A stretch of 52,303 nucleotides of DNA from Gracilaria domingensis. Its lineage: Eukaryota; Rhodophyta; Florideophyceae; Gracilariales; Gracilariaceae. A model generated the notes under the pieces. That model worked only from the letters and a program-made list of their open reading frames with translations. It was not told where the DNA came from and ran no database searches. This document shows, in pieces, positions 1,737 to 52,303 of the stretch. The stretch's first letter is position 1; each line of letters opens with the position of its first letter. Position numbers and translations under genes: made by a program. Location: the NCBI GenBank assembly GCA_022539475.1, contig VCMS01000110.1, positions 162,385-214,687 on the forward strand, in the 5' to 3' direction.

Positions 1737-4700
1737 ATGTACATATGTTGCTTCCCCCGCTGCGCCTTTCACACAGACTCTATCGCCTCCCTCGCGCAAC
1801 ATCAGAAAGGATGCATGCCCCAGCATGACCCAAACCCTTTTCTCACTCCTGCTGCCCCCCGCGGTTCCCTCTTCACCCCCCCCCCCCCCCCCCCCCAAAA
1901 CGAAACGTCGCCGATTCAGCAGTACCAAACCGCCTCTCTCTTCTCCCTCCAACCGCCCCTCCGATAATGTGGCACTCGCTGCTGACGAACCGTATGAAGA
2001 ACGGCAGCTCGCTCTCTCCATACGTTCTGCTGACGCAGCAAATCTAGCTACACCATAACCCCCATTCAATTCTCAGTCCCTCTCCGTAGGTTCTGTTCAT
2101 GTCTTCTCTCCGCCCGCTTCAAGTGAGAACATTCACAATCTCGTCACATACACTTCCTCCATCGCCCTGACACCTGGAAGGCGCTCCGCAGACGAGCTTA
2201 TCAACATTCTCAGGCAGTCCGACTTTCCCCCCTCTCTTTTCCAAACCTCCATCACCTCCGCTTCTGAGTGTCTCAAACAACACTCCAAAATCTTTAAAGA
2301 TATCGTGAGCTCCATCGGCTTCACCTCCACCACCATTCACGATAACAACAGTCAGTTCGCTGCCACCCTCTATGTCAAGGACCCCATTAAAGTCCTTCAA
2401 CCACAACTTCGGCTAGCATCCCATGAGAACGACTTCTTTCACCCAATTCACCACGACTCTCTCACAGGAGCCAACGCATTTGCGCATCCCATGTCTTCCA
2501 AACTCGGACATGACGTCATTCCGGCTTTGAAAAAGCACATCGGACATTCTCCAAACCCAGGAGTCATCTGGCATAATCTTACCACTACTGGTATAGACTC
2601 CTTCATCGGCATGCTTCAAATCTACTCCAATAAGTCCTCCACCACGCTAAAAAGCTCCTCTGTCACATCATACCCCCTCTATATCACGTTTCTCAACTTC
2701 AAGGACTCTTTCCGCAGAAAATATATCACACACCACCACACTCTCCTCGGCTACATTCCGACTTCCTTTACATCCTTCTCCCCCGATTCTTCCTCCACTG
2801 ACACCGACTCTTTGGAAATTGGCCCCTTGTCGTCGAACATAACTCGCGTTGTGCGCATGGAGCTTGTCCAGAAGTCCTTGGAAACTATCCTCAAACCTCT
2901 GTACGATATATGCAAAAAGGCTTCCCCTTCAGAGACGCCAAGGGAGTCCTTCGTCAGTGCCATCCCATTATCGCTAACTATAGCGCTGACATTCCCGAAG
3001 CAAAAGACATTCTCGCTGTCCTCCACGGCACACAACCAAACAAGCCCTGTCATAGATGCCTTATCCCTCTTTCACAACTCAACGTATATCAAGCCATTCT
3101 CAACCTGCGAACTGTATTCCACACCTCTGCAACGAGAAAGAAACACCAAGATCTACTTGCCGGCGCTCAACAGGCTCTGCTCTCCCGCAGACCTCGAGTG
3201 GCAAGGACCCTGAAAATGAAGCTGTTGAACTACTCCAAACCACCTCCTTATCCACTTACAAGTCCTTTCTCGAATCATTTCCTATTCTCAATGTCTCCGA
3301 GCTGCTCACTTCTTACTCAATCTTCTCCTTCGAGCCACTTCATAACTTTCATTTCGGAATCTCCAAACTCATCAAACTCGCTTCGATTGAACGCCTCAAG
3401 TCCGATTCGCTTCACACTTCTGTTGGTTCTCAGGGAAACCCGAGGTCTTTCAGAACCGTTCGAACTTCTATTCTAAGCCATGCCAACGCCATTCTCGCTG
3501 ACATTGAGCGCTTCTATCCGGCATCCGGACTTCACATCGACTTCTCCACATCCGAAAAAGGAAATCTTTCAACGGTTTCTTCACGACAGACGGCATCAGT
3601 GGTATGTTGGAAGCCAAGGACTACCATTCCTTTGATGTGGTCTTCCCTTTCATTGGCGCTTTCTTTGACCGCTGTTGTGTTGAAGAATTCTCCGCCCCTA
3701 TTACCACCGTGTTCACATCCTACGTTGACCTCATCAACAACGTCCTTCGCTACAATACAACTCCAGAATGAACGGAGCATCGCATAGATGCGTTGGAACC
3801 TATGATCAAGAACTTCAAGTTTCACACAGTCTCCACTCTCGGCCCGTACCAAGCCTCCAACTTTCGTACTCTTAAGTTCCACCTCCTTGACCACATCATT
3901 TCAGACATACGGCGATACGGAGGCCTGCACTTCGGCGATGCATGCGTGTACGAACATGCTCATCTTCTCTTCAAGAACCACTATCGTCGAACTTCTCGAA
4001 GGCGAACTACTGCTGATAAGAAAACGGTGAACGCCATTCAAGAATCGCAGGACTATTTGCAATCCCTTTCGGTTAAAAGGCACTTCTCTTTGTCCTCCAA
4101 CTCTCGCAGCCCTTCCATCAAACGCTTTCCGGCGATGGTTCGCGACGGTAACTTCTTCTCAGTCTTTGACATCATCACAGCTGACAAGTACGATCGCATC
4201 CACATGTATCTTCTTCGGCTCTGGCAGAACTTTTCTCGACAACCTCACTCCAGTTCATCAACCAAATATCTCGCGACGCTCTCACCTCCTTCCGCACCCT
4301 TTGTGTAGAAACTATTCAACAGCTGAAGGACCCTCACGACATCAAACTCACTGTCGTTAATTCTGCATACGTTCTTAGCGGTTCTGCCCCTCTCTCTATG
4401 ATTACGATCGGGACCTTCGATGCATAAGACTGAGAAAGCCTGATGTACAACTATGTGAACGCATCTTCGCTACGACCTCCTTCGTACCTTCCAAGTTGCC
4501 TGCGTTCTCCACGATTCTTGTGCACGGAACACTCCCTCCCAAATGTACGTTTTCCACAGCGTGGGTATGCAAAGTATTTTCATCGCTTCGCGTCAGGGAC
4601 AAGAGCTCAGAGAACTCTGAATCGGAGCTCGCTTTCGTTCGTTTCTTCGAAGTGACAGAGCTCTTGGAAAACGTTGATGAAACTCTTAGCTGTGTATCAC

Positions 4701-4950
4701 TCCGTTGGGCCACCGACGACGAGCATGGTCACACCGTGCATTTAAGTACGTCAAGGATGAAACCTCGTTCTTCTATGGTCTCTCCTTGGTTCGGGCTTAT
4801 CCCGTTCTTCTCAATCAAAGACTCCATACACGTCATTCGCCAAAACTACCCTGCCCGACTATTTTTCCCTCCCCTGCACTGGCAATTCCATCGTTTCTAC
4901 ATTAACAGATTCTATCGTAACCCTAGAGCCCACATTCATCATACTCGTAC
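1737..4950 (+). pseudogene. Plavaka/KDZ-like DDE transposase, copy 1 (broken)
   Basis: This is a decayed DNA transposase, collinear with the better copy at 45809-48835. It starts at an ATG (1737) with a short C2HC zinc-finger-like head, then a basic stretch (KTKRRRF). The core shows IYSNKSSTT, then SYPLYITFLN, CHPIIANYSADIPEA with CHRC, EPLHNFHFGISKLI, and LKFHLLDHIISDIRR with YEHAHLLFK. These follow the order of the Plavaka/KDZ catalytic core. The presumed first catalytic Asp is Asn (codon 2629-2631); the later Asp and Glu remain. The frame changes at a C21 run (1876-1896), near 2910, 3200, 3565 and 4200-4400. There is a TAA at 2056-2058, and a TGA at 3769-3771 where copy 2 has Trp. It faces the minus-strand gene at 4986 tail to tail. 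The C-terminus extends further than in copy 2. The family call rests on motif order, not a search. Confidence 0.75.
1876..1896 (+). repeat. C21 homopolymer
   Basis: Twenty-one consecutive C residues lie inside the N-terminal linker of the copy-1 transposase. The zinc-finger head before the run and the basic segment after it are in different frames. The run is therefore the likely site of a length change, either replication slippage or a sequencing error. Confidence 0.95.
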
Positions 4951-4985
4951 TACGTAAAGTTCTTAATATAAACTGTTCATGTACT

Positions 4986-7501
4986 TTAAATATTCTCCTC
5001 CTCGTCTTTCATCTCGTGCTCATCGTCTACACCTCCCCCGTCTCGTTCCCTACTTTGTTCCGAGACATTCGGATTACAATCGGTCACATTATTATCTCGG
5101 ATTTCATCGATTGCTCTTATAGGAGAGTTTACGCGATCCCGTGGGTCACAATACCCAATATAGCAATCCAATACGGCTCCAAGATGTTCTGTAATATCTT
5201 CCATGAATACATGTTCTCGAACAGCTAGATATAGCTTCTTCTTAGACGGTATCGAGTATGCCACAGTTCCTACAGGGTCATGGTCTCTATTGGGTGGATC
5301 TTGAGCCATTGAGCCGTTCCTGAACTCCGTTCCAAACTTCTGCTCCATTTTCATTCGTGCAGCCATCAGTATACTTTCCAACGCCTGTGCAACATATTTT
5401 CCTAAAAGGTTGGAGAACAAAACCTGCCTTTTACCTCCCAGCCCTCCTTCGAACTCTGCAGCTCGAACAACTGGCGCGATCCAAGCGTCTAGACGCGCCA
5501 ACTGCACTATTGTGTCATCCCCTGGGTCCTTGTCTCCCGCATTTCTCGAATCCTTTTGGTTCACATCGTAACGCAGAAACTCCCGTAAGACCTGTAGGCT
5601 TAGAACGTTTCTAAACTGCAAGTCTTGCGGCTTGTTCTGTTCGCCACGCATTTTGAACCCGGAAAATGATATGTTCTCTATTTTGGATGTTCTCCATGTG
5701 GAGAGAATCTCACACCCTTTTGCATCTAGCGGCAGAAGCTTCTCCCGTAGTTCCTCCGCTTGGTTTAGGTATATGCTCCTCTCCCTAGAAGAGATGTTGT
5801 CTCCACCAACAAGTCATACCCTAGCTCCATCAACAACTTCTCTTTCGCATGGCGTTTTCCAACCCCCACCGCATCGCTCAAGGACTGCTTCAACCTCTTC
5901 CGTAAGCAAATGTCGCTGGTCAGCTGTCTAATGCAGTCTTCTTCCATCTTCATCTCCCAGATGGATCCCCAACGAGGTTTCATTACCTCCGTCTCCACGA
6001 TTTGCATCAGCAAGTTATGACCCGTACCACGAATCGATGGAGTATACGCTCTCATCTCCATCGCGACCTCCATTGGACAGCGTGGAACAATCTCTTTCCC
6101 ATCAACGACCAGGACACTGTACTCAGTCTCAGGTCCGAGTGTCTCACTTCGATTCTCCCAGTTTCTCGCCGGTGAACTCATCTCGAAGCACAATTCCCTT
6201 GTCTCGTCTTTCGCGTATCCCAGTATGGGCTCGTAAACTGTCTTCGCTACCCCTACATACGCGTCGTTCACATCAATCTCGTATCTTTTCCTTCCTCTGT
6301 GCGAATCATGCTCCCTCCGTGTTGCTCCTCGCTTCAGTGCCTCTCGAAGTGGTTGTATTAGAACATCTTGCTCCTTCACCTTCAGCTCTAGTTCCGTCAC
6401 GCTTTTCTGTGCTATTCTTACGGTCATCTTCAGACTTTGATTATCCTCGGTTACTCGAAAGAGACCCGCTTTCAAGTCTCCAATCTTGTCCAACAGCTCG
6501 TAGAGTGGCGTTAGGCTTTCATCTTCTTCACCTTCTTCGTCTACACCAGCAAGAGCACGAGATGGAAGCGTACGTTTAATTTTCCGGCGACCTGCCACAT
6601 TACGACCCCTTTCGTTCCATGTCTCTTTTGGTAAGTCTGACCCCACCTCTGTCCGTTCCCTACGCATCTCGGCAAAGGAAATCGAGGTCTAACCCTTCCA
6701 TCTCATTTGGTTGAACCTATTCTGCGATGGTACGACCGTACGAAGAGCAGGCTCTATCTCGTAGACTTCTTCCTCGTTCGTACGACGTTCGGGATGAATG
6801 GAATCGTTCCCATTCCGGAAATTCTTCCTCGACGGTGCGGGTGCACGTACAGAGGACTGCATATTATCGACTTCTTCCTCGTCACTATCATGATCGGCTT
6901 GAATGGAGTCGTTCCGGTTTTTCATCTCCCTTCGCGATGTCGCCGGCGCACGTACAGTGGGCTGTATATCATCGGCTTCTTCTTCGTACCTACTACGTAG
7001 AGGTTGAATGGAATCCTTTGTAATGCGCCTCGTCCTACCAGGTGAGATTGCTTTTTCATGTCTCTCCAACTCTTCTTCGATGACATTGTTTCTCAAATTT
7101 CTTGTCCGTGTTCCTTTCGCTCTCGTACGTCTGTCTGTACCATTTTCTTCCACATTCGCATCATCGATTATTTTTGGCACTTTCTCTGCAGCCATGTGTC
7201 GTGTAACCCGCCCTCCCATTGAGCTGTGATGTGGTAACACTACTTCGCTCTCTGTCACTTCTGTTGTGGTCGTACTAACACCCAGCTTCGGTTTCGGTTT
7301 TGTCTTCGAAGCCCGCAGTGCTGACTTCGAACTAGATTTCTTTCCAATAAGCCCGACACGGGGAGCTCGTCGTCGAGTACTTCTTCGGGTCGTGGCAGGC
7401 GGAGGGTTCTTGCGCTTAGCAACGTCAATACAATATCGCGGGAGTGTTTGGGATCCCTTCGTCTCCCGGTCGTCCGCGTTGCTGTGCTTTTGTGAAGCCA
7501 T
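4986..7501 (-). pseudogene. Unrecognised basic/coiled-coil protein of cluster 1 (broken)
   Basis: I do not recognise this gene. It starts at ATG 7499-7501 and would encode about 830 residues. The N-terminal 270 residues are basic and AT-hook-like (RRSTRRRAPR) and end in three imperfect 35-residue repeats built on DSIQ...EEE...VRAPAPSR. A Leu/Glu/Lys-rich, probably coiled-coil middle follows (near TELELKVKEQDVL), then a mixed C-terminal region with an acidic tail (MKDEEENI). A single in-frame TAG (6689-6691) interrupts it right after the repeats, and a frameshift lies near 5780-5800. It converges on the transposase with about 36 bp between ends. A DNA-binding or scaffold role in the element is a guess from composition. 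I saw only a faint likeness to the unknown protein at 49784, around a GDD/GDE...KRQVL/RKQVL segment. Confidence 0.55.
6704..7018 (-). repeat. Three 35-residue coding repeats
   Basis: Three consecutive copies, about 105 bp each, encode DSIQ/DSIH, then a short charged part with EEE, then VRAPATSR, VRAPAPSR or LRTVVPSQ. The third copy is the most diverged. They are in frame with the N-terminal half of the 4986-7501 gene. Confidence 0.75.
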
Positions 7502-7544
7502 ATTGGGCTTCAGAATCGTGTGAAAAGGAAGGGATTATGTTCGG

Positions 7545-8064: not shown

Positions 8065-8643
8065 TCATGGATAGCTCGGTCCATAGCCTACGTACAGGTC
8101 GTCGTGTTTATGAATATCCCTGGTAGCCGTCACCAACAGTAGTCTATCGCTTGTGAGTGTACCCCATGTGGTAGCTTGATGCTCGGAAGGCTGTCGAATA
8201 ATAACGTTTGGTAAGCTGCCTTGGTAAGACTCCATCTCGGCCAAATCCTTCTCTTCGTCCCCATCGCGGTACGAAGCATCATTGATGTAGCCCGCTATAC
8301 AGAAAGGAGCGGGTACTACCCAGGCAGTCGCAGTATTGATTTCGGAATCATAGTGAGGAAGCGTGCTGTACATCTGCCCTTTCAGCTTCACTTCCCTGCA
8401 ATACCTATTGAAACGAGAAACGGTGGTACCGAGCACTCCGCTTCCGTATTTCATCTGTTTTGCATTGCGTCGGCTTATGTCATGATATACCAATGTCGCA
8501 TAGAAGTACCCAACAACCTCTCCTTCCGAGAATGATCTACTACTGAACACTCCATCTCCACTTGTGAGTTGTTTGATATTTAATTTCTTCCTGTACAACG
8601 ATAAACCTGCTGCTTCAGCGGCGAGCAAACTCTGTACATCCAT
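8065..8643 (-). CDS. SET-domain-like protein
   Basis: This ORF encodes about 192 residues from the ATG at 8643. The N-terminal part has SGDGVFSSRSFSEGEVVGYF (residues 28-47), which fits the SET GxG..F..x.I..GE.V..Y entry motif. Later come GYINDA and SLPNV, in the place of the NHS..PN motif, and at the C-terminus ATRDIHKHDDLYVGYG, which fits the RDI..GEEL...Y end motif. SET enzymes transfer methyl groups from SAM to protein lysines, usually histones. The canonical NHSC is not intact here, so activity is doubtful. It begins only 15 nt after the methyltransferase stop (8659-8661) and lies in the same frame, so both may come from one transcript. Alternative: a SET-fold protein without catalysis. 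The matching place in cluster 2 would lie beyond the window end. Confidence 0.55.
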   Translation of the reverse strand: MDVQSLLAAEAAGLSLYRKKLNIKQLTSGDGVFSSRSFSEGEVVGYFYATLVYHDISRRNAKQMKYGSGVLGTTVSRFNRYCREVKLKGQMYSTLPHYDSEINTATAWVVPAPFCIAGYINDASYRDGDEEKDLAEMESYQGSLPNVIIRQPSEHQATTWGTLTSDRLLLVTATRDIHKHDDLYVGYGPSYP

Positions 8644-8658
8644 CGTCTCCAATGTGCT

Positions 8659-9917
8659 TTAGAGATTCAGAGGCCACTCGTGCACCGGTTTCTCCTTCTG
8701 CTGCGCGATGAGACTCGGTTCTCTGCAAAAAGTTGCGATGTAGGAATTGATACGAAACGGGAAACATTGGTAAGGCGGGAATCCTTTCGTTGCGGTCCAT
8801 ATACGCGAGGTTCTTTGCTTCCCTTCTTGGAACTTTGTCTGTACTAAATACGAGGCCTGAACGACCTCATTACTGACAGTTATTCTTGCGTTGAACTCGT
8901 TACCCCAAACTTTCCTCGCATACATCACTACAGCATTGTGTTCCGCATGAGCGAAGCACTGCTCATCTCTCTCACATCCAATAAAGCGTCGGGGATCTTC
9001 CATGTCCATGCAAGCCAAGGCACCGGAAAATGTTCCAATATAGGGATCAACCACAACGTCCGCGGGATTTGAGAACCTGGCAATGAGTTCCTTTAGCAGT
9101 GCCCTCGGTTTGTGTCCGGGGCGAACCTGAACCAAGTGTATTTTGGAACGCTTCTTCACCCTCCAACGGAGTCGTTCACCAGCCTCCAGATGCGGAACCT
9201 GATCGATAATGGAGTAGTCCCCGGGGTACTGCGTGGGAGCGTAGTTGAAATTTTTGTACTTCACCATTACCTTATGCTCCTCGTACGCGTTTCCATTCTG
9301 GACTCCGTGCACGGCATACTCGGTTGCAGAGGACAACCATGTTGTGTTCCTTCCGGGTTTCTTCAAAGTGTGCGTACGAGAGCGAATGAATTGCATCGGT
9401 GCGGGGTCGACTAAGAACGAAGCACTTTGCCTCCCCACTGCATTCTCCGATTTATGCTCACGTAGAATCTCCTCCCAGTCCGCGAACTGTTCGATAGTAC
9501 AGAACATTATAAAATGACCGCCAGGGCGAGGCATTGAGGCCATCATTTCTGCAGTATTAACCATATCTTCGTCGAGAAGCTCATCATGCTCACTGTCACA
9601 TATACCATAAGGTGGGTCCGTGAGTACGAGTTGAACATGTCCTCTAGGAAATTATCGGAAGGGAACAGTGTACCATGAGTCTCCACTAACTCTTCATAAC
9701 CAACTCAATCCATAGAGAACTGTTGCTCCATTTTCTTTTTGACCACACCGAGAGCCTTCGTCGTCCTTACATCGCCAAAGTCGTGAGGTGGAAGAATACC
9801 ATCAGGAGCAATAGAAAGAGGATGCGCTCCGTCGTCGTCATCATCCGTGTCGTCTATGACAATGACATCCACGGGACCCGGGTCTGCACCGGATGTTTTA
9901 CCGGATGTTTTACTCAC
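8659..9917 (-). pseudogene. N6/N4-type DNA methyltransferase, copy 1 (broken)
   Basis: This is a SAM-dependent amino-methyltransferase of the N6_N4_Mtase type. Reading leftwards, the catalytic motif is LTDPPYG (DPPY codons 9618-9607), followed by GGHFIMFC, TEYAVHG, KPRALLKELIARF, and the SAM site VVDPYIGTFSGALAC with GCERD. This permuted order, catalytic motif before the FxGxF SAM motif, is that of beta-class bacterial-type DNA methylases. DPP[YF] usually goes with N6-adenine. Upstream, an acidic IVIDDTDDDDDG segment and a helical segment match the copy at 50776 in position. A TGA at about 9714-9716 and a frameshift near 9650 break it. No ATG opens the acidic segment, which starts at GTG 9917, so a 5' exon or lost start is possible. 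The C-terminal core is open. The SET-like gene follows after 15 nt. Confidence 0.8.
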
Positions 9918-10052
9918 CGCCCTAAATTGCTTCTTGCCTCTGTGTAGATACGTATAAACTGCGATGTGAAAAGACCAATGTGCTCTGCGTAGCTCTACTC
10001 AGCTCTATGTTGTACCCTACAACCTGCTTTCGCACCCCCCGTAGAGTGGCGA

Positions 10053-10194
10053 GGTGGCCGGATGCGACGTGTTCAAACCGCGGTCTGGACCGCGGTCAGC
10101 CGAGTTCATAGCCGAGATCATGGCTACGATCTCGGCCATGAACTCGGTTGACCGCGGTCCAGACCGGGGTCTGAACACGTCACATCCGGCCACC
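10053..10194. repeat. 142-bp near-perfect palindrome in a divergent promoter
   Basis: Two arms of about 71 bp are inverted copies with only a few mismatches, with no real loop (centre near 10123/10124). The arms begin and end GGTGGCCGGAT / ATCCGGCCACC and include CCGCGGTC palindromes. It lies between the minus-strand methyltransferase (from 9917) and the plus-strand ParB/oxygenase gene (from 10582). No target-site duplication is obvious, so it is not clearly a fold-back MITE. Confidence 0.9.
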
Positions 10195-10506
10195 ACAGGA
10201 GGGTACCAGGGGAGAACCGTGAGGGTTGATCATGCTGTCTGGTATGCATCTAAGCCTTCTACACCGTCCGTAACCGCCTGTACCACTCTTTCGAAGTGAT
10301 GCGAATGTTCACGCCAGCATTTCCGCGTGCTGCACTACAAATCTGCGATACGAACCAGTGCGACGCTTCAACCGACAGCGAAGCGTTTACCGTGTTCAAA
10401 CCGAGCGGGTGCGACGTTTGCTGACGTAATCAGAGCATTATACGATTACCGCTTTGTTCTGCATTCAACTTTTATAGGTATTTGACGAAGCTAAATTCAA
10501 AGACGC

Positions 10507-10514
10507 TATATAAT
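10507..10514 (+). promoter_or_regulatory. TATA box before the ParB/oxygenase gene
   Basis: TATATAAT lies about 68 bp before the ATG at 10582. It is the only strong TATA match in the interval between the palindrome and the gene. Confidence 0.45.
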
Positions 10515-10581
10515 GGAACCAAGAGGATTAAGGAACCGGCAGATGAGGCGCTCCCGAAAGCCGCGGAAAGTTTGAAACCTC

Positions 10582-13080
10582 ATGGCGCCGCATCTTGGAA
10601 GTGCGAAGAAGACAAAAGAAGGAGGGAAGGAGAGTAGTCAGGGAGCACAGAATCCGGAGACAAGTATGAGCTCTAATGCGGGGAAAGAGGAACCCGCACC
10701 GGGGGACAAAGTGACTCTTCTGATCGCGGGGAATGGAGGGGATAAGGTCCCAATTGGCACGGCTGATGTGGTAGCCATCGAGTCTGCTGGCGACGGCAAA
10801 GAGTATCGAAGAGAAATGCATCCTCACACACTGAAAGGGAAGCCGGGAGAGGATATAGTCGGTATATGGCGAGTTGATGTATCGAAGGGGCTCCATACAC
10901 CGTACCGGTATCCCTTTAAGTGTACGGATGAAGACTCCATTCCGAAGACCGTTGCAGACTTAAACAAAATGGGTTTCTATGCTTGGGACTTGAAATTTAT
11001 GGCTTCAGGTGAGACCGTCCAGAACACCACGCCGCAGATGCCCAGAAAGAAATCAGGGCATACCAACGCGACGTCCACGACAGGATGGAAATGAGTGCGT
11101 ATGCCGGAAACACCGAAACCCCCGCGTACACCGAGTGGGAAGCACTTGCCACCTTAAGTATCCCAGGCCAAAACACCAGGCAAACAACAGAAGAACAAAG
11201 GGGGGCAGGAAGTACCGCCCCCAGCGCCTCAGCCTGTGCTTAAAACTCCATCTAAGCAAGACCAGGGTTGTACAACGGTAGGAACTGCACAATTGACCAC
11301 AACTCCGGAGAGTGCCGTCTCTGCATTACGGAAGCAACCAGCGATGAATGTCCAGTCTGGGTCGTCCAGAAAAAGCACTGCTGAAGCGATTGCAATGGCT
11401 GGGAGTCACAGTGGAGCTAGGATGGAAGTTGTGGATGTGGACGAAGTGGATGATGATGACGTTGTCTTGGTGAAGGAGAGCTTGGCTGGAAACGTCAATG
11501 AACTATTCGACGAAGGTGATGAATTACCTTCGAGTGACGTGGATATGAGTCTCGCGTCGCTCAAGTTCACCCTGGACCATTATGAGTACGAGTCTGTGAA
11601 GGTCGACGTCGACCTAATCGAGATCCCGGACGCAACTGTGAGAGGGACAGTTCGGGAGCATGTTGAAGCTCTGAAGGCGGAGATTCGAAGGAAAGGGTTT
11701 CTTCAGGCCCTTGGAACGATGATTGTTGCTATTTTGATCACTGGTAAGTCCGAGAAGGAGATGGTGGAGGGCATTCGCGTGAAAGTTACTTGTATCCTCA
11801 TAGATGGAGCTCATCGTATTGTTGCACTCAAGGAAGTATGTTAGGAGGATGCGAAGATAAGAAAACTGCGTAAAGGACTTACCGTTTCCTTATGGAGAAG
11901 AAAGCATGAACAAAAGATGAAAACGAGGGAGCTTCTGAGCATGGGTAATGCTTTGAACGATGGACTGAAGCAGGCCCGACTTATGAACTTCGCCGACAAG
12001 GTTCATTCCATTGTATCCTTTATAACCGCGATGGTTGAAGAGGAGAAGAAAGTGTTGAATAACATGACAAGAACCGCTGTTGCGGGTGCCTTAATTGTAT
12101 GCGGAATCATAGCTCAGTACCATATCAGGCATCTATCGAGATTTGCGGAGATAGGTTTGAAGGTGGCCAAGAGTCTTCGATTGCTGAAGCATTTGGAAAA
12201 TGTGTGTCGGGAGTATAATGAAATTGGTATTACATCTATCTCCAGTGATGAGTTCTTTTCTATGGATGAGGACACAACCGATTTCACCCTCGACACCCTG
12301 GCAGCATATTTTGCGAGGAGACGAGAGTCCAAACTGAAGGGCCGCTTTGAAGAAATACGAAAGTATTTCTTTATATGCTGCCGGTCTTTAAATGAGCTGG
12401 CCGTTGAAGTATCGAAAAGAAAGAGACTCTCTCTGAAGGAAGTATACGAGATGCAGATTGAATTCACTAGGTTTGAGAAACTCAGTCTCCGTGAGTATCA
12501 TGCGACACAGGCCGCACGCCTGGAAACTGCAGCGATAAAGAAGCTTTGGGGCGGAAAGATATCGAGAAGGATGGCTTATGCTCGTGAAAAGCTGAAGAAG
12601 TCCATCGGGATGGATTTAAATTCGACTGTGGGGCCGTCTGCTACGGCGGAAGGGGGAAAAGCGATCACTTTTACGACCCAAGTCACTAAACCGGATACTC
12701 GGGCGTCGCGTTCTAAACTTGTTAAGGCGAAGAATGCCGAGGAAGACGTTCAGGAATTGGTGAGCGACGTGATTTTAGTGGAGCCAAGTGGTACGGGGTT
12801 GAGAAGGAGCACCAGAAGAAGTCGTCGACGAAGGAAGATGATAAGCGATAACAACCCCAGGGCTCAAAAGAAGGTGAAAGTAAGCGAGGTGCCCCAAGAT
12901 GAAACATTCGTCATCGATCATCTGCGTAAGCTTGGGGGAAAGGGGTCAGAAGCTTCCTCAAAGCTCATCAAATCTCCTTCAGCAGCGACACGGACTCTGA
13001 TTCAGCGCCAAATGTTGAGACGCGAGGAGACGACACGGATCCTTTCGACGACGACAGAGTCCCGAAAATTCTACTCCTAG
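10582..13080 (+). pseudogene. ParB-like domain protein, probable N-terminal part of oxygenase copy 1
   Basis: Starting at ATG 10582, the first about 140 residues are unrecognised (YPFKCTDED, YAWDLKFM). A helical and disordered linker then runs in the third frame, with a return to the first frame near a G6 run (11200-11205). From about 11584 comes VDLIEIPDATVRGTVREHV, then CILIDGAHRIVALKEV; the DGAHR codons are 11803-11817. This fits the ParB/Srx-like fold, whose hallmark is DGxHR, and the following LLSMGNALND resembles the segment after it in ParB-type proteins. A TAG (11842-11844) interrupts in frame. After a long helical region, RRSTRRSRRRRK and a KKVKV patch match the basic N-terminal part of the oxygenase at 42682-44607. 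This suggests ParB and oxygenase are one polypeptide here. ParB folds bind CTP or act as nucleases in bacteria; the role here is unknown. Confidence 0.55.
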
Positions 13081-14401
13081 GGCTGAAGAAGGCAGACGAA
13101 GGACCTTACGAGGGGGGGGGATTCGTGGTTGAAATTGTTGAAAGTTCCTACCAAGTGGCATGCTGGAGTGGATGGGATTAAGTCGGTATATCCGTGGATG
13201 GATGCGATACATCTCCGGAAGGAGCACCGAGGCCATTTGCTCGAGCCGAAGGACTTTAAAGAAGTACATCATGCTGTGTTTTGGCATGCTGCGTCTCAGG
13301 GTCAGAAGCTTCTCAACAAGGCGGTAGGAGAGGGGAAGGTTGATAATGGGACCCTATGGGCAGAGGCAGTTAAGAGCGATTCCGTCGCGTACATGTATTT
13401 TGTGAACAAGATGGTTGAGCTTCGGGAGAGAGGTTTCTGTATTTTGGAAGGCTTTGCTTGTGACAAAGACCTTTTGAAGATGACTGAAAGTCTTAGCAAG
13501 CTCATCGATGGGATTATAAGCGTCGAGGTATTGGCCTTCTTCAAAAAAAGTTTCGAAGAAGCCCCAGACCTCAAGGTACCAAAGAATCGAACTACATGGA
13601 TTTCTTTAATCAACGCGGACAATGGGAGGTATATGAGGACAAGGAGGGGGTATAGTGGACAAGCTGGAGAATAGAGCGGAAACGCATTTGCTTTTCAAGA
13701 AGAGGGCGTTGTTAGATGCTCAGCTTGGTCAGATATGTGCGGCGTTGGGGCTACAAGACAACAAGCAACCGAATGAGAGAATGTATGCACCGAAAACCGA
13801 AGGGAGGATTTTATGTACCGGAGTGACTTGCCAGCGACAGCAACTATATACCGACTTCGAGACCTTGACAAACGAAGACAAGCTGGAGGGGAAGAACCAG
13901 GGGTACTTTGTGATGGTCTCCAGAACTGTGTCGTTCCCACTTTGGATATGTGAAGGATTTCACAGTCACTTTGCTGTAACAGCAAAGGCATTTAAAGGGT
14001 TGGCACGAGGAATGGTTGTGAGAAAGTTCTTTGTACCATCTATGTCTGTATTTATTGGGAGGAGGGATGTATTTCATGCCGGTGCGGGCACTAAAGATGG
14101 AAGATTTCGGGAGAACCCACTGTTTCGCTACCATATGTATATGGTACCAGAGAAGTACAGTTTGCCGGATGCAGTTCTTCTGAATCACCATTTTCTACCG
14201 ACTTTTGTGGAAGAAGACGATCTCATGGGAATGAAGTACAACACAGTTGGTTCTGCGGTGGACATCGAATTGGTGGAGAATGGGGAGGACGAGGACGAAG
14301 AGGATGAGTTGATGGTCGAGGAAGGGGACAGGGAGGAAGAAGACGAGAACTATGAAGCGCAGGGGATGGAGGAAAGGACAGAAAATGGGGAGGAGAACTG
14401 A
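13041..14401 (+). pseudogene. 2OG-Fe(II) oxygenase-like protein, copy 1 (broken)
   Basis: This aligns along its length with the protein at 42682-44607: VHHAVFWHAA, RGFCILEGFA, MYAPKTEGRIL, GYFVMVS, VFHAGAG, RYHMYMVPEKYSLPDAV and an acidic tail. The fold is that of a double-stranded beta-helix dioxygenase that uses iron and 2-oxoglutarate. The first iron ligand is changed: the HxD motif reads Y-T-D (Tyr codon 13847-13849), where copy 2 has H-T-D. The distal His (in FHAG) and the Arg (in RYHMYMV) remain. A frame change sits at a G9 run (13112-13120), another just upstream of it, and another near 13640-13670. The copy is probably inactive as an oxygenase even if translated. It is continuous with the ParB-like part upstream. 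Confidence 0.7.
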
Positions 14402-18250: not shown

Positions 18251-21200
18251 ACGGCAACAAAAATCACGTGCCTATACGTTTCATTTCGCGACCATCATAC
18301 TGAGCAATGCGTAGGGCGGTATACGTCAACTGTCTGTTGAGGCTTGAATTGGAGAGAAAGAGACCTAGTACAGATGGACGAGCGTAGTATACAAAACAAT
18401 TGAAATTAATTTGTTTTGCACACTCAGGTCCTATACGCACAAATTTTTTGCAGATTTTTTGAACTATATTTCAGTACCGTATAATTCGTGTGGTTTCTAG
18501 TGCAGGCGTAATAGCAAAAACGACGAACACAGACGGTAACTGATATGCGCGTTGGACCGCTGTTCTATCCGGGCAATACCTTAGTCAGCTTTTAGATGAT
18601 AAAGGATATTCGAACCGCAGAAGGCGACCAATATTACAGTGGCTAACTGTGGGTAGGGAACAACGTCCATTTAATAATGTGCATAGAGGTGGACCAGTAA
18701 GTTTATTGTTTCGCTTACCTCTTTAAAAAACTCTTTCCCACTATCAATAAGCGTTCTGCAGCAGACTCGCGCACGATTTCAGTCCGGTGATATTCCCTAG
18801 CCTTCAAAGCTGAGAACTCGGGGGTTGCATATAGGGGAGCAGGACTCGGACCTCCTGTGAATCCTCTCCCGTGTTCTCGGGTTTGTCTACACCTCCGTCC
18901 TTAGGCGTATCCCTCTCGTACACGCAGCCGTCTTCCGCTTGGCGTTCCACAACCCCTATCTCGATCACTCGGTTTTCGCGCAACGGTCAAACTCGCACGG
19001 ATTCACCATCTGCGCCTTGTCCCCTGTCCGGTGGTGGTCAACTTCCGCCTCCGGCGACGGGTTTACCGCAGTGGAAACTGGATCGGCCCTCTTGTTCCAG
19101 TCCAACCAGTGTCCCAACCCGCATTGCAGGGCCGCGTGGGCGTTTCGTACGGCTAAGAAACTCGACACAACGTTGGGGACCCGACTCGAACTAAAATACC
19201 GACACCGTTTCTTACGGGGGCTCCGTGGTTCCATCCGCAAGGCTTGGAGCCTGGAAACATTCCCTCAGCCGTCGAGGCGTACTATGACCCGCATGGGCAC
19301 GCTGGTCCACTCCAACAGAGGAAGCGCGTGCCACGTCCTCGCGATGGGCCGCTCTGCGCGTGAGTTCCCTTGAGACTGGTGAGACTCGTACCCCGTGATT
19401 TTCCTCGTGCGCCGCACCTGAGTGTTGCAGTCTCACAGTTTGAACAAGCATCGTGCGGGGCGGTCGTGGTTGCGGACCAGACTCCCTCGCGTGCGTCTGC
19501 ATTTGTCCGCTCGCTGGTCATCACAAGAAGTCGCCCCCAACAAAAAGATCCCTCTCCATAGGTTATGTTTCCGGAGGTCAGTTGGCTGGGTGATGACGCG
19601 AGGCGACATGGGACAAATGTTGTCTGCAACTTATTTATAGAAGGCGCATCGACTCCGTTGAACTGTGCCGTTTGACGCTCGCCTGATATCTGTCTAAACA
19701 ATCGGCGAAATCCAGCTTATGGGGAGCGCATAATCTTGCCATTGGGTTGCCCGCGCTGTGGTATGTGGAAGTCGCTTCCCACTCTACTTACCGTTTCGCC
19801 TCACCAGGACATGTGTGCCTAGTAGGCGGGCCTCCGTCCGACATCTTCGCTGTTGACTTAATTTATACAGATACCGCTCCCCCGGTTCGCCTGCAGGTTC
19901 GCCAACTTCCTGCAGCGGAGCATATAGAGTCCCGTCGGGTTTCGACACACGTGCTCGCGCTCCAGAGTGCGGGGTATGCTTATACCCGTGAATATCAAGA
20001 AAAGCAGCGACCCCTGACGCAAATAGAGAAAATCTTTGCTCAATCTATTGGTAACACGCCTGAGGTTGGAGTCGCAGATTTTACAGTATCGGAGCGGTGC
20101 TCGTTGCAAATAATCTGCTTGCAGAGCGTAGTGTTTATTCGCAAACTTGTAGAGGCCGAAATACGTGAAGCGGGCAACACATTCTGGCCATCCGTCACGA
20201 GCAGTGCTAGCTTTCCCTCAGCGCATGTCGCAGTACGCTTTCCGAACGTGGAGGACCTCGTCTCCACGATTAGATAACGGGTGCTGTGGTCATTCATACT
20301 ACACTCTGTGCCGCAGATTCACACTCACTTTGCCGCCCATGCGTCCTCCACCGAGGCTCAAGCCGCGCTCGCCGTTCCTGCCTCGCCCGTTATGCCATTC
20401 ACGTTGTGATCCGGAGGCATCGCGCCGTCTCCATCGGCTGCCACGGCTTTCCTCTACTTTATGACTCGAATTATCCGAACAAAATTGCGAGTGGCCGCAC
20501 CAATCCAGTCCAGGCGCACATCCCTCCTCTGCCATGCCAGGCTCCCAGCAGCCCTGGCAACCTACCGTATACTCCCCGGCAAATTTTGTTGCCGCGCCGT
20601 TACGGAAATCCACGCCACTAAGTTCCTGCTCTGTCGCACGACGCCCGTATGAGCGGCCGGTGTTCGAGAGAGCTACGATACGTACACGCGTCGAATGCAT
20701 GCCGGCCGCGACTTGAACCACCATTGTCCAGGTCCGATGCTCCCCCTTCTGATCGCGGATATTTACCGCCGCCATGCGCGCTGTTGCGCGTCTTACGTTT
20801 CACCCTGCGTTGATTGCCTCTCATACCGTTCGCCTGTGTTTGCCGATCAACGCGATTTCCATGTGGTATATATGCGAGCTCAAGACTCTGAGTGTCGCAG
20901 ATCTGCGCGCTCTTCTGTACGCACCACTCGTTGCACTTCTCCCATTCAGCGTAGGATTGAGCAAATCATCGACATGTTTAATAAGATTACCCCTGTCAAT
21001 GAGTCAGTGTCCTCTGTGGTCTCCGTCTCGTGTTCACCTCGGCTGAGTGTGATAGCCAATATACCTCCCTCTCTCTTTTCGTTGGGCCTAGCGCAGAGTG
21101 CTTGGCGCTGAAGTGATGTGCTGAACTGCGATGAGCTTTCTGTGTTTCACTCAGACGGACACGCGCAGCTCGTCGCCGTCTAAGTGTGGGATCGTAGGTT

Positions 21201-27540: not shown

Positions 27541-27848
27541 AGCTGATCATTTTGATAGAAGCATTCGCGCCCAAAACCAGGTGTTGTTTGAACACGTCTG
27601 GGAAAGGCTTTGCAGCCCTTGCACTGCGGTGCATGGGTCATGCTACATTATCGCTTACGTTTGGGACGGCTTGAACAGGTTTGAACTCGTCTGCCAAACA
27701 ACTAGGAGCGTCGTATTACGCGTCTGCTAGACAGCGTTGATTCAGCTGCTGATCACAGCGTCACGACTCGTGAGCGACGATCGCTCGACTGGCTGGCTGA
27801 CACTGTTGTTCGTCGTGCTGGAAGTTGATGAAGATGCCATCTTCTTCA

Positions 27849-33000: not shown

Positions 33001-33009
33001 TTTGGCCTC

Positions 33010-35215: not shown

Positions 35216-36579
35216 GCGGACCGCCGCGAGGGCGCATCGCCACCTAAGAAGGGGGCAACAGACGCCGAACATCTCGGAACCACAAACTCAAAAACGGTAG
35301 TGCACCCCAACCGGACGGGATACCAACTGCGCTCTTTGTCTGATTCAATTGATGCTCAGAGAGCCACTTTTCGCGTCAGCTCTTGGGACACTACGCACAG
35401 CATCAAACAAAACTGATTTACAACAAATTGACCCGAATTCGGGAGGACATTGAAGGAGAGCTACCTGGAAGGCTTTCCAACACTTTCTGCAATGCGCGGC
35501 ACGCACGGGAGCGCCCAGCAAAGACGCAGCACACGCGGTGGCGCCAGCAAGGACGCAGTGCACGCGGCGGCGCCCAGCAAGGACGCGCCATGCCATGGAG
35601 AGCGGCAACACCATTCGTGCAGGCTCTCTTGGCCCGTATACGGCAGGTTGCGCCTTGAACCGCCAAAGGCTACTTGCAAGGATAATCAAATATTTGCGGC
35701 GGAATTACCCCTCCGCAAACGGTCAGAAACGGCGATTACTTGTTTGCCCGATATCTCGGAAACGAAGCTCTTTCAGAGGCTGAAAACACGCGATTTGCGC
35801 TCCCGGCGTGCTCAAAGTACTTAGGACTTTTTGAGAGCCGGCGCCCACGATCTATGTGCATTACTGATTACCGAATCGGTTACTAAGCGCGCGCACATGC
35901 ATGGCAGCTCTCGAGCTTTCCGAAAAATCAAACTGTTTATTTGAATAACATTGCTGGTCACTGGACATACCGTTGCTCTCCGCAAGCCATCCTCCCAGTT
36001 CTACAGACGTACGTTTCGATTTAGGCTCGTCACCGGAACTATTGAGCCTCTTTCCTAGCTGCTATTTTATCCTCTTCGCGAGCTGCAGGATCGTTCGCTC
36101 TATCTTCATCCGGACTCGGTTTCGCACCCGTTTCTGCACTTTGAATTGTGGCCTGATCTTCTGCTACTAGCGCATCCCGGATGCGGTGAAGGCGCCCAAG
36201 GAGGAACCTGCGTCCATCGGTTCTACGCTGAACGACTCCGTGGCCTCCGCGACAACGGCTTCTGCGCTTTTCTGTGATACAGAAACAATGTTCTGAAAGT
36301 TAGTGACCACCGCTGCACGGAAGAGACCTAGTCTGCTCATCGTCTGTGTTCTGCAAAGTGGAATATAGTCTGTTCGCTTTGGAACCTAAGCTAGTTTTGG
36401 GGCTATTTCGGGCGCGCGAGGGGGTAGCAGAGGCTGGCACTCAAAAATTAAGAAATTTTGGAATATTAAATTCCATCTCGCGCAGTTTAGTTCTTGGGTC
36501 CCTAGTTTTTGTAGAGGTTCTACTTCGCCGCACCATCCCATTCACTCTTTTTCGCGACCCTCTCTCAAAACTGCACTCG
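35216..36579. other. Mixed sequence, one possible minus-strand coding scrap
   Basis: I see no complete gene. On the minus strand between about 36300 and 36050 the text reads like an acidic low-complexity protein (SQKSAEAVVAEATESFSVEP; then ALVAEDQATIQSAETGAKP in another frame). This may be a fragment of an unrecognised gene. A short minisatellite lies at 35511-35592. Confidence 0.3.
35511..35592 (+). repeat. Minisatellite, about 30-bp unit, 2.7 copies
   Basis: Units at 35511, 35541 and 35570 share GCGCCCAGCAAGGACGCAG and CACGCGG(C/T)G; the second lacks one C. They are head to tail. Confidence 0.8.
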
Positions 36580-38280: not shown

Positions 38281-38345
38281 GAGAATTTAGTTGTGATAAC
38301 ACGTAAAGGTAACAATGTAATAAACAATAATTTATGCTACTATCT

Positions 38346-41505: not shown

Positions 41506-42417
41506 TTATGAATCATAGTGGTTTTTATCGTGCTGCTTTTCCTCGTAGCCGTACAACAGAGCCACCAACATAATTGTCGAATGTACATCCTCCACGCTTT
41601 CGAACAGGTTGTGTACTCCACCCGGGATACAATCTTCTTTGACGTGAACGCCGTACACGCCTACCTCATGCAAAGGCCCGTCGCTCAAAGCACTTCCGAA
41701 CGTCACGACGTCATCCGTATCAATAAATCTCGGTTCATTATCCACAAGATTTTCTCCTCCGCTTCCTTTTGTGTATCGCTTGTCCACAATTTCGCAACTT
41801 TTATCGCCGGGATAGATAACAAACGCATCCATCTTCTGCAACAGGTCCCCAATAGCAGAATCCACTTCTTCCCTCCACTGCCACAGTTTGTTGTACACGA
41901 AATTGGGAAGGCCACTATCACTTCTGGTCTCCACGAACCCCTTGTCATCATCATTCACAATACCATGCTTCCTATTCAAATCCCTTGCCAGGAACAGTAG
42001 TCCGTCAACAGTGTGGTCAAGGGTGTGATCATTGAATGCACCCTTAATTTCCCTCTCGTCAGAGAAACGCAGGAAAGCTCCATGATTCGCCGAGACACCA
42101 AACTTATAGTCTCCGAGTCCTTCCATTTTCCCCTCCACGTCGCCCACATCACCCCCTGTGACAAGTCCGAAACCAACACGTTCGTCAATGAACTTCATAC
42201 ACTTCACAACTTCTTCTGGAATTGACTCTCCGTCTCTTCTCAACGTTATATCAACGGAACTTAATATACCGGAACCATTGGCATATATGAACTTAGACAA
42301 GGTATTTGGTGAAATTTCCGCCAAGTCTCTCTGTTCCTCTGCCATTTTTCCTGATACAGTCAACATACTGCCACAAGTACCGCATAGACAGGAACTGTAT
42401 AGACTTCTCAGTTTCAT
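41506..42417 (-). CDS. HAD-IIB-like protein with lost nucleophile (paralogue)
   Basis: An intact 303-residue frame from ATG 42417. It is a paralogue of the gene at 40582: ESIPEEVVKCMKFIDERVGF, SDSGLPNFVYNKLWQWREEV, VVTFGSALSDGPLHEVGVYG and EDVHSTIMLVALLYGY align throughout. Motif I reads ILSSVDITL: the nucleophile Asp is Ser54 and the Gly of DGT is Ile57. Without the nucleophile a phosphatase reaction is not expected. Motif II keeps GLVTGGD. The gene is open along its whole length although catalytically altered, which suggests either a retained non-enzymatic role or recent loss. The two genes are convergent, ending 53 bp apart. Confidence 0.75.
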   Translation of the reverse strand: MKLRSLYSSCLCGTCGSMLTVSGKMAEEQRDLAEISPNTLSKFIYANGSGILSSVDITLRRDGESIPEEVVKCMKFIDERVGFGLVTGGDVGDVEGKMEGLGDYKFGVSANHGAFLRFSDEREIKGAFNDHTLDHTVDGLLFLARDLNRKHGIVNDDDKGFVETRSDSGLPNFVYNKLWQWREEVDSAIGDLLQKMDAFVIYPGDKSCEIVDKRYTKGSGGENLVDNEPRFIDTDDVVTFGSALSDGPLHEVGVYGVHVKEDCIPGGVHNLFESVEDVHSTIMLVALLYGYEEKQHDKNHYDS

Positions 42418-42681
42418 ACTTCTCTTAAAAGCAACCTTAAGTGCAGTTTCAGAAATGTTAGGACGCTACATGTTCAATTGCGAATTGACTGGTGCCACCA
42501 ATGATGTTAACGATACCGAGCATTTGGCATGTTGCAATTAGACGCAACTGGACCAAAGAAGTTTGACATTTGTTCAATTACCAGCCTGCCGCACCTTTTC
42601 TATGTTCATATGTATAGCCTTGTAATAGTATACTACTCTTAATACTCGCAAGACACACATAGTTTACTAATCATCTCATTC

Positions 42682-48800: not shown

Positions 48801-48835
48801 ACGTGCCCGCGGGCGGAGGGGGTCGGTCGTGTTAG
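45809..48835 (+). CDS. Plavaka/KDZ-like DDE transposase, copy 2 (one TAG, C-term cut by repeat array)
   Basis: ATG 45809 in CCCATGG context. Residues 1-30 form a C2HC finger (YYCTHKKRGC...HVNHC), followed by a basic RRSKRLKL. The core has VYTDKSSTT with Asp291 (46679-46681), AYPLHLIFLNF, CHPLLASYCADIPEA with Asp405 (47021-47023), CHRC (425-428), EPLHNLHLGISKLI, LKFHLLDHLVDDIRR and YEHAHLLFK with Glu727 (47987-47989). This order matches Plavaka/KDZ transposases (SDKT..a.Pvyl, adyPEq..CPrC, LHxxhkG, pKxHxxxH, sExxH). An in-frame TAG (48098-48100) interrupts after residue 763; the same frame continues without other stops and aligns with copy 1 (LVNSAVVKGG). After about 48740 the reading runs into the palindrome array, so the C-terminus is shorter than in copy 1. 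TAG readthrough or mutation are both possible. Confidence 0.78.
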
Positions 48836-49666: not shown

Positions 49667-49783
49667 CCGAGCGGACACGGACACGGACGAGACTGGCAGT
49701 GCGCTGGGAGGAGCTGCCGAAAGCGGGGGTGCCCAGCGTAAGTCGCCATTTAAAGGCTCGCCTCCGTTGTTTGCGCTGAAGCG

Positions 49784-52299: not shown

Positions 52300-52303
52300 G
52301 GAG

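What the first reader, a model, noticed from the sequence alone, without database searches (positions are those of the whole stretch)
8065..14401. Cluster 1 and cluster 2 are two diverged copies of a transposon family that carries DNA methyltransferase and 2OG oxygenase genes
Seen: transposase, DPP[YF] methyltransferase and 2OG-Fe(II) oxygenase all occur at 1.7-14.4 kb and again at 42.7-52.3 kb, alignable along their lengths but clearly diverged and in different order. Known: KDZ transposons of fungi and some algae carry TET/JBP oxygenases. Inference: here the element also encodes a beta-class DNA methyltransferase, so it would carry both a base-modification writer and a possible oxidative eraser, plus SET-like and ParB-like parts. 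I know of no described family with this set.
Basis: partly seen in the sequence, partly recalled or inferred. Interest (0 to 1): 0.93.

Follow-up and report, generated by a model that had tools for sequence, protein, structure and literature searches.

The report
Giant red-algal transposons carrying methylation genes
The two gene clusters are copies of very large, abundant jumping genes of a red seaweed that carry, besides their own transposase, a DNA-methylating enzyme fused to a histone-methylase-like part and a putative oxygenase fused to a ParB-like part, so the parasite may mark its own DNA; [quoted passage not shown]

Summary
Both clusters belong to one lineage of giant Plavaka-type DNA transposons, 20-23 kb at full length, in a 77.9-Mb genome, most probably Gracilaria domingensis. 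Ends are sharp: terminal repeat 5'-CGTCTGT..., 474 left-end and 490 right-end pattern matches for the cluster-2 family, exact 2-bp target duplications in 14 of 20 end pairs (shuffles: 2.1). Three subfamilies share one order: transposase>, <X, <MTase-SET, ParB-like-oxygenase>. Between subfamilies MTase, SET, ParB and oxygenase parts are constrained about as strongly as the transposase, so they work for the element. Corrections: Plavaka, not KDZ; nothing links the oxygenase to TET/JBP (orphan with invariant HxD...H...R); no C5 DNA methyltransferase was found, so a 5mC-eraser role is unlikely. Near-perfect palindromes between the two divergent genes are candidate ParB sites. Giant elements with accessory genes, and ParB/amino-MTase proteins, are reported from algal transposons: a new variant of a known kind. 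No activity is shown.

The parts
2059..4957 (+). Cluster 1 (family 1) Plavaka-type transposase, broken into several frames; upstream open frames begin near 1498
   Evidence: PF18759 E 4.8e-9; aligns in pieces to the cluster-2 transposase at 38-57% and at 74% DNA identity to the single-ORF family 3 transposase C12:67474-70803
4986..7534 (-). Protein X, no family match above cut-off (weak coiled-coil hit PKcGMP_CC, E 0.021); three ORFs 4986-5813, 5765-6688, 6689-7534; a 682 aa ORF in family 2 copy C81
   Evidence: family 2 X against family 1 and 3 X: best E 5e-42, 35% over 245 aa; family 1/3 pN 0.21-0.24 against pS 0.64-0.76
7233..7233 (.). Unoccupied site: the related copy in contig C231 carries the right end of a family 2 element at this exact position
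   Evidence: C231 73431/73432 junction reads GTTACC then CGTCTGTGTTCTGCA; the other end of that insertion was not seen
8065..8658 (-). SET-like C-terminal part of the MTase-SET protein, cut from the MTase by a stop codon in this copy
   Evidence: PF00856 E 1.1e-4; same frame and continuous in other copies
8659..9651 (-). Beta-class (N6/N4 amino) DNA methyltransferase part; motif DPPY precedes the FxGxG-like motif I; the N-terminal part of the gene is deleted at about 9924
   Evidence: PF01555 E 2.9e-14; deletion by comparison with C231
10053..10194 (.). Near-perfect palindrome in the spacer between MTase-SET and ParB-oxygenase genes
   Evidence: 67-nt arms, 93% complementary; inner 20-nt arms
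10576..12500 (+). N-terminal half of the ParB-oxygenase protein with the motif IDGAHRIVAL (broken frames)
   Evidence: 29% identity to family 2 ParB part; ParB-like PHROG E 0.0026 on the family 2 protein
13087..14401 (+). Oxygenase-like C-terminal half; metal-binding HxD reads YxD here (probably dead copy)
18525..18535 (-). Right terminus of the cluster 1 element, 5'-CGTCTGTGTTC reading inwards
   Evidence: 37 of 40 genome-wide matches to 18200-18900 stop at 18533-18538
36341..36357 (+). Right terminal inverted repeat of the cluster 2 (family 2) element, CGTCTGTGTTCTGCAAA
   Evidence: 490 matches of the longer pattern in the genome
40384..41453 (+). HAD-IIB type phosphatase-like gene carried by family 2
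   Evidence: PF08282 E 1.1e-9; TIGR00099/TIGR01484 matches below their cut-offs; in C108 and C81 copies
41506..42465 (-). Second HAD-like gene; the first Asp of the DxD motif reads Ser (SSVD)
   Evidence: the string ILSSVD lies beside the oxygenase in 20 of 20 fetched copies, window copy included
42682..44749 (-). Oxygenase part of the family 2 ParB-oxygenase; ParB half missing in this copy
   Evidence: 97.5% to the longer copy L040; junction at 44749
45422..48613 (+). Family 2 Plavaka transposase segment, in inverted orientation relative to the standard element
   Evidence: PF18759 E 5.4e-20; colinear with C108 27730-30926
48744..49586 (.). Tandem about-110-bp repeats with palindrome CGGTCGTGTTAGGGTAG/CTACCCTAACACGACCG, spacer between MTase-SET and ParB-oxygenase genes
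49754..52299 (+). Family 2 MTase-SET protein, N-terminal domain (49754-50779) and MTase (50710-52299), frame broken near 50730; SET lies beyond the contig end
   Evidence: 98-99% to the 1055 aa ORF of L004; PF01555 E 3.2e-15

Best explanation
Both clusters are members of one lineage of giant cut-and-paste DNA transposons with a Plavaka transposase (shown: transposase family, terminal inverted repeats, 2-bp target duplications, hundreds of ends, three subfamilies with one gene order). Besides the transposase the element encodes protein X, an N-terminal domain fused to a beta-class amino-methyltransferase and a SET-like domain, and a ParB-like domain fused to a putative Fe(II)/2OG oxygenase; family 2 also carries two HAD-like genes. 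Proposed working, inferred: MTase-SET writes an amino-methyl base (6mA more likely than 4mC) on element DNA and modifies nearby chromatin protein; ParB-oxygenase is recruited by the element's own palindromes in the shared promoter region and oxidises either that methylated base or a chromatin target. Together they set the chromatin state of the element, to escape host silencing or to regulate its own promoters, and the transposase moves the whole.
For: Ends and TSDs. Standard order in C108, C81 (family 2), C12 (family 3) and window cluster 1 (family 1). Linkage among the best-scoring places only (82 MTase, 64 oxygenase, 56 transposase): all 13 MTase-oxygenase pairs within 5 kb are divergent (the window pair is a 14th at 5.9 kb); 7 of 8 MTase-transposase pairs within 4.4 kb are convergent, the eighth being the rearranged window copy; 3 oxygenase-transposase pairs lie on one strand at 9.6-13.8 kb. 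Purifying selection, family 1 against 3: pN/pS MTase 0.155/0.780, SET 0.173/0.634, oxygenase 0.231/0.668, ParB 0.267/0.683, transposase pieces 0.11-0.21/0.61-0.70. MTase profile best matches DpnA and CcrM, adenine enzymes. Invariant HxD...H...R in family 2, family 1 and metagenome protein P0003. Both fusions appear by alignment in unnamed metagenome proteins P0003 and P0004. In the window the only palindromes with arms of 15 or more lie in this spacer of the two copies, and all four other copies examined (C231, C12, C81, C108) have them there. No C5 DNA methyltransferase found; CpG observed/expected 0.99 in the window.
Against: No activity of any part is shown. SET and ParB assignments are weak by sequence (SET 23.0 bits against 22.4 in cluster 1 but 17.4, below cut-off, in C231; ParB E 0.0026 in PHROGs, GmrSD_N 0.22 in Pfam); Pfam names neither SET in P0004 nor ParB in P0003. 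SET motif strings are found in only 9, 15 and 13 of 20 fetched family 2 MTase loci, against 20 and 19 for two MTase motifs. The oxygenase matches no family or solved structure; its fold could not be predicted. Six of 20 end pairs show no exact 2-bp TSD, nor does C12. Fifteen of 20 spans are under 15 kb, so MTase and oxygenase may be dispensable in trans. Other pairings do not fit one standard element: MTase-oxygenase on one strand at 14-18 kb (3) or divergent at 12-19 kb (2), MTase-transposase divergent at 5.9 kb (1) and on one strand at 10.2 kb (1); they may join different elements. Best-match lists are truncated.
Confidence: 0.6

Rival explanations
1. The extra genes are passengers: host genes captured by chance and hitch-hiking, with no function for the element.
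For: Fifteen of 20 spans are under 15 kb; HAD genes were found only in family 2 (no HAD match in C12 or C231, nor in window cluster 1).
Against: MTase-SET and ParB-oxygenase are kept in the same order in three diverged subfamilies and are about as constrained as the transposase; both fusions are seen by alignment in metagenome proteins outside the genome.
Confidence: 0.08
2. The oxygenase is a TET/JBP-like eraser that removes host 5-methylcytosine from the element, as proposed for TET-bearing fungal transposons.
For: Plavaka families with TET/JBP genes exist in two Agaricales fungi (PMC12730594, passages).
Against: No Tet_JBP match; genome-wide search negative though its control stayed silent; no C5 DNA methyltransferase found; no CpG depletion.
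Confidence: 0.1
3. Base-modification for protection rather than erasure: MTase and oxygenase act in sequence to make a modified base on the excised or newly inserted element, shielding it from a nuclease or marking it for the transposase.
For: Writer and putative oxidiser are encoded divergently around one shared spacer in the three families; phages use methylase plus TET/JBP chains to hypermodify DNA (stated in PMC12730594, section 4.2).
Against: No transferase for a further step was recognised; no target known.
Confidence: 0.2
4. The oxygenase acts on protein, for example a histone or the SET product, so the pair tunes chromatin and not DNA bases.
For: SET-like domain on the partner protein; orphan oxygenase without similarity to a known nucleic-acid oxygenase.
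Against: It is fused to a ParB-like, presumably DNA-directed part.
Confidence: 0.25

Closest known systems
Plavaka DNA transposons (CMCT group), fungi; some carry TET/JBP (Kojima 2025, PMC12730594; abstract, passages and section 4.2 read)
   Same: Plavaka transposase; CxxC and HxxxH motifs; 2-bp TSDs as in PlavakaA; an oxygenase gene as cargo
   Different: Termini CGTCTGT...ACAGACG, not TGT..ACA or CATCA..TGATG; oxygenase not recognisable as TET/JBP; extra MTase-SET and ParB parts; red alga
Giant EnSpm elements with accessory genes in red algae (Petroll et al. 2025, Bostrychia moritziana; not held; known through citing passages in PMC12477816; from recall, unchecked, its abstract speaks of giant Plavaka transposons)
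   Same: Giant size, red alga, accessory genes, related transposase group, probably the same broad lineage (inference)
   Different: Cannot tell: gene content of those elements was not seen; MTase-SET and ParB-oxygenase fusions may or may not be described there
Ectocarpus Sola1-1_Ec32 ParB-MTase protein (Dinatale et al. 2025, PMC12477816; abstract, passages, part of the reference list read)
   Same: A giant transposon that encodes ParB-like and N4/N6 amino-MTase domains, suggested there to bind and mark its own sequence
   Different: There ParB and MTase are one 1104 aa protein in a Sola1 element; here MTase is fused to SET, ParB to an oxygenase, in a Plavaka element
Retrotransposons with DNA methyltransferases (SymbioLINE/SymbioDIRS DNMTs; Dam-like MTases of DIRS; de Mendoza et al. 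2018, PMC5890265; listing and passages read)
   Same: Transposons that encode a DNA base writer
   Different: Retroelements; C5 enzymes or Dam-like; no SET, ParB or oxygenase partner in the passages seen
Bdelloid rotifer N4CMT (Rodriguez et al. 2022, PMC8885841; listing and passages read)
   Same: N6_N4 (beta-type) amino-MTase joined to a chromatin domain in a eukaryote without canonical C5 methyltransferases
   Different: Host gene with a chromodomain reader, marks transposons and is thought to help repress them; here a SET-like domain on a transposon's own protein

Membership tests
Plavaka | Transposase matches PF18759 | tested here: met
   E 6e-24 (C12), 5e-20 and 5e-9 (window), 36-85 bits against a 26.3-bit cut-off
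Plavaka | CxxC and H(3-4)H motifs in the transposase (Kojima 2025) | tested here: met
   CHRC and HLLDH in families 2 and 3; position relative to catalytic residues not checked, and other H(3-4)H strings occur in family 3
Plavaka | 2-3 bp target-site duplications | tested here: met
   exact 2 bp in 14 of 20 pairs, never longer; shuffles mean 2.1, maximum 9 in 20,000
Plavaka | Published terminal motifs TGT..ACA (A) or CATCA..TGATG (B) | tested here: not met
   termini are CGTCTGT..ACAGACG (family 2 both ends; family 3 both ends; family 1 right end); hence Plavaka-related with another terminal type, not PlavakaA or B
KDZ (Kyakuja-Dileera-Zisupton) | KDZ transposase PF18758 | tested here: inconclusive
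   no match in the genome, but no control genome rang either
KDZ (Kyakuja-Dileera-Zisupton) | 7-8 bp TSDs | tested here: not met
   TSD is 2 bp; the 7-8 bp values are from PMC12730594
TET/JBP dioxygenases | Match to Tet_JBP PF12851 | tested here: not met
   none in Pfam scans at E up to 10; genome-wide search negative with silent control
Fe(II)/2OG oxygenase superfamily | HxD...H...R facial triad and co-substrate arginine (motif recalled, not from a call) | tested here: met
   invariant in window cluster 2, C231 and P0003; the three motif strings in 20 of 20 fetched family 2 copies, which were the best-scoring ones; YxD in window cluster 1
Fe(II)/2OG oxygenase superfamily | Double-stranded beta-helix fold | not testable with these tools
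Beta-class amino DNA methyltransferase | PF01555 with DPPY/F motif before motif I | tested here: met
   DPPF in 20 and motif I in 19 of 20 fetched family 2 loci
Beta-class amino DNA methyltransferase | Methylates adenine N6 or cytosine N4 | not testable with these tools
   profile nearest to adenine enzymes DpnA and CcrM
SET domain | PF00856 above cut-off | tested here: inconclusive
   23.0 bits against 22.4 in cluster 1; 17.4, below cut-off, in C231; none in P0004; weak SETD8 matches
ParB-like | Recognised ParB N-terminal domain | tested here: inconclusive
   PHROG ParB-like E 0.0026; GmrSD_N E 0.22 (that it is ParB-related is recalled); no ParB match in Pfam; motif [IV]DGxHR in L040, window cluster 1 and P0003

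The most novel reading that the evidence does not exclude
The element carries a complete epigenetic module of its own in a host without C5 DNA methylation: MTase-SET writes a DNA mark and a histone mark in one polypeptide, and ParB-oxygenase, loaded at element-specific palindromes as ParB is at parS and perhaps spreading from there, oxidatively removes or rewrites the mark. Transposons would then be the main DNA-methylation system of this alga, and each subfamily's palindrome would make its oxygenase recognise only its own kin.
Probability: 0.2. Interest if true: 0.88.

Novelty: new variant of a known kind. Interest (0 to 1): 0.62.

Why it matters
Transposons that carry a DNA base writer, or an oxygenase, are each known; a DNA transposon in which a writer fused to a SET-like domain and a ParB-like oxygenase are both conserved, under about the same constraint as the transposase, would let one test in a single system whether parasites set their own epigenetic state. 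No C5 methyltransferase was found in the host, so methylation found on element DNA could be attributed cleanly. The palindromes give a ready binding assay.

Tried and rejected
Telomere reading of contig ends: oxygenase copies often lie at contig ends, but the end sequences of the eight looked at are element interior, so these are assembly breaks in a repeat. KDZ: no PF18758 match and 2-bp TSDs. TET/JBP: no match. Viral or prokaryotic origin of the oxygenase: scans of viral and prokaryote contigs found no relative; of ten viral contigs met with the MTase profile, nine match a stretch of 47-74 residues at 28-47% and one matches residues 35-271 at 25%. A genome-wide pattern for a family 1 right end was badly designed and found only the window; a DNA query settled the end. 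The full-length MTase-SET search of the protein database found nothing, the length filter being the likely cause. The left end of the cluster 1 element was not found: the flank fetched outside the window reads N, and the other contig carrying the same copy is too short.


Full report
WHERE THIS IS. The window lies at the end of contig C110 of a 77.9-Mb, 680-contig genome. Two proteins annotated in Gracilaria domingensis match the oxygenase of this genome at 88-91% (P0001, P0002), and G. domingensis is quoted at 78 Mb (PMC10388701, passages). The host is therefore very probably that red alga (inference).

THE OBSERVATION. Both clusters encode a Plavaka-type transposase and a beta-class amino-methyltransferase by Pfam; the SET match is just above cut-off in cluster 1. 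Cluster 1 and cluster 2 align as proteins: MTase-SET 35%, oxygenase 32-43%, ParB part 29%, transposase 38-57%.

A MOBILE FAMILY. The cluster-2 proteins have many near relatives in the genome: 82 MTase places scored of 690 candidates (83% identity or more), 64 of 827 for the oxygenase, 56 of 1658 for the transposase (only best candidates are scored, so these are lower bounds). I aligned C108 and C81, two copies that hold all the genes (not all of them unbroken); they are colinear over more than 20 kb. Their common sequence starts at CGTCTGTCTCTTGCAGATGC on the left, and C81 and the window share the right end CGTCTGTGTTCTGCAAAGTG (the right end of C108 is missing). A degenerate 23-base left-end pattern matches 474 times (the 100 places listed are all of the left type) and a 25-base right-end pattern 490 times; the same patterns read backwards match 0 times. 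From the places listed (the first 100 of each) I paired ends by orientation and spacing and fetched 20 pairs. Fourteen of 20 show an exact 2-bp target-site duplication and none a longer one; shuffling the right flanks gives 2.1 on average and at most 9 in 20,000 trials. The spans run from 6.4 to 22.9 kb. Five are 20 kb or longer; of these C6, C29 and C34 hold a listed oxygenase or MTase place and the other two (C5, C8) hold none that is listed. Seven lie at 10.3-10.8 kb and four at 13.8-14.1 kb. The 20 spans average 14.2 kb, so about 480 copies would make up some 7 Mb, or 9% of the genome (rough inference from selected pairs).

THREE SUBFAMILIES, ONE ORDER. With the cluster-1 MTase as query, and counting matches of at least 280 of 330 residues, the list holds 24 places at 78-100% identity (family 1, window included), 32 at 66-68% (family 3), 20 at 37-39% (mostly the cluster-2 type, family 2), and a few in between (74, 60, 51 and 44%) that may be further lines (121 of 591 candidates scored). 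Family 3 copy C12 runs from 65379 to 85355 with 15-bp exact terminal repeats CGTCTGTGTTTCCGG (its flanks show no exact TSD). It has a 1110 aa transposase ORF, X in two overlapping frames, a 1118 aa MTase-SET ORF, and ParB-oxygenase in broken frames. Family 2 gives single ORFs of 1100 aa (transposase, C108), 682 aa (X, C81), 1055 aa (MTase-SET, L004) and 1308 aa (ParB-oxygenase, C81). X of family 2 matches X of families 1 and 3 (best E 5e-42). The order is transposase>, <X, <MTase-SET, ParB-oxygenase> in C108, C81, C12 and window cluster 1. The right end of cluster 1 at 18535 was checked independently: of 40 genome matches to 18200-18900, 37 stop at 18533-18538. Among the best-scoring places every MTase-oxygenase pair within 5 kb is divergent (13 of 13), with the window pair a fourteenth at 5.9 kb; 7 of 8 MTase-transposase pairs within 4.4 kb are convergent, the exception being the window; the wider pairings, which fit less well, are listed under evidence against.

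WINDOW COPIES. Cluster 1 is a decayed family 1 copy: broken transposase, a stop between MTase and SET, about 2.5 kb lost at 9924, YxD in place of HxD. Cluster 2 is a rearranged family 2 copy: right end at 36341, HAD genes, oxygenase cut at 44749, a transposase segment in inverted orientation, then palindromic repeats and MTase up to the contig end. A related family 1 copy in C231 carries a family 2 right end at the position equal to window 7233, where the window is unoccupied.

SELECTION. Between families 1 and 3, pN/pS is 0.291/0.707 for the N-terminal part, 0.155/0.780 for MTase, 0.173/0.634 for SET, 0.267/0.683 for ParB, 0.231/0.668 for oxygenase, 0.21-0.24/0.64-0.76 for X, and 0.11-0.21/0.61-0.70 for three transposase pieces (synonymous sites are near or at saturation, so the ratios are rough). 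The window copy against C231 gives dN/dS 0.53 for MTase and 1.0 for SET, as expected of decaying copies. The cargo is thus constrained about as strongly as the transposase.

WHAT THE PARTS ARE. The MTase profile finds DpnA, CcrM and MboIIA, adenine enzymes, first. The SET part shows weak SETD8 similarity. The ParB-like part has the motif [IV]DGxHR, and a PHROG ParB-like partition protein matches at E 0.0026. The oxygenase part has no meaningful match in Pfam, NCBIfam, PHROGs or the PDB, but H-x-D, a distal H and R are invariant among family 2, family 1 and metagenome protein P0003. By alignment P0003 has the same ParB-oxygenase fusion (32% identity over 27% of the query) and P0004 the same MTase-SET fusion (36% over the MTase); Pfam itself names neither the ParB part of P0003 nor the SET part of P0004. 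The module therefore seems not to be private to this genome. No viral or prokaryote relative of the oxygenase was found. Family 2 adds two HAD-like genes, the nearer one beside the oxygenase in 20 of 20 fetched copies (these were the best-scoring ones).

PALINDROMES. In the whole window the only palindromes with arms of 15 nt or more (loop up to 12, one mismatch allowed) lie in the spacer between the divergent MTase-SET and ParB-oxygenase genes: one in cluster 1, five in cluster 2. C231, C12, C81 and C108 have them in the same spacer, with arms up to 39 nt; families 1 and 3 share one core sequence, family 2 has another (the other contigs were scanned only in that spacer). They are candidate binding sites of the ParB-like domain (inference).

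SUBSTRATE. A search for C5 DNA methyltransferases (PF00145) found none in the genome, while 10 of 14 control genomes, all prokaryotes as listed, rang (a gene cut by introns could be missed). CpG is not depleted in the window (0.99). A 5mC-eraser reading is therefore unlikely; a methylated adenine, or a protein, is the likelier target (inference).

PRIOR ART. Kojima 2025 (PMC12730594; abstract, passages, section 4.2) describes Plavaka with 2-3 bp TSDs and TET/JBP cargo in fungi. Dinatale 2025 (PMC12477816; [quoted passage not shown] Neither of these two was read (Petroll not held; Iyer 2011 not looked up). [quoted passage not shown] In ten paper searches I met no MTase-SET or ParB-oxygenase fusion in a transposon; this does not show that none is in print.

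VERDICT. Element identity is near certain. A working epigenetic cassette is likely from constraint and repeated linkage. The exact chemistry is open.

Noticed in passing
window 25110-26336 +: Separate DDE_Tnp_4 transposase (PF13359, E 3e-25), a different DNA transposon between the two elements.
   Followed up: no
C12 65379-85355 (L092, L093, L095): The family 3 element abuts family 2 oxygenase sequence exactly at its right end (window 43405 equivalent), which looks like one element inserted in another, but its left flank shows no matching 2-bp duplication.
   Followed up: partly
window 48818-49570: The family 2 palindrome core reads TTAGGGTAG/CTACCCTAA, resembling telomere repeats; no TTAGGGTTAGGG array in the window. 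Probably coincidence.
   Followed up: partly
window 36341-52303 and 18536-36340: GATC is scarce in the element (observed/expected 0.41) and not in the stretch between the two elements (1.12); small counts, no test made.
   Followed up: no
several contigs, e.g. C91:121479, C591:7304, C28:32225: A set of MTase copies matches the query only over residues 7-454 at about 98% identity; five of them lie convergent to the transposase at a nearly constant 4379-4382 bp: perhaps a distinct recent derivative.
   Followed up: no
C440:21323-27659: A second contig carries the cluster 1 core at 100% identity over 6337 bases and continues past the element end at lower identity: allelic or duplicated locus.
   Followed up: no
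one search places, e.g. C299, C20, C263: MTase matches at 44-60% identity to cluster 1 lie between the three subfamilies and may be further lines of the element.
   Followed up: no
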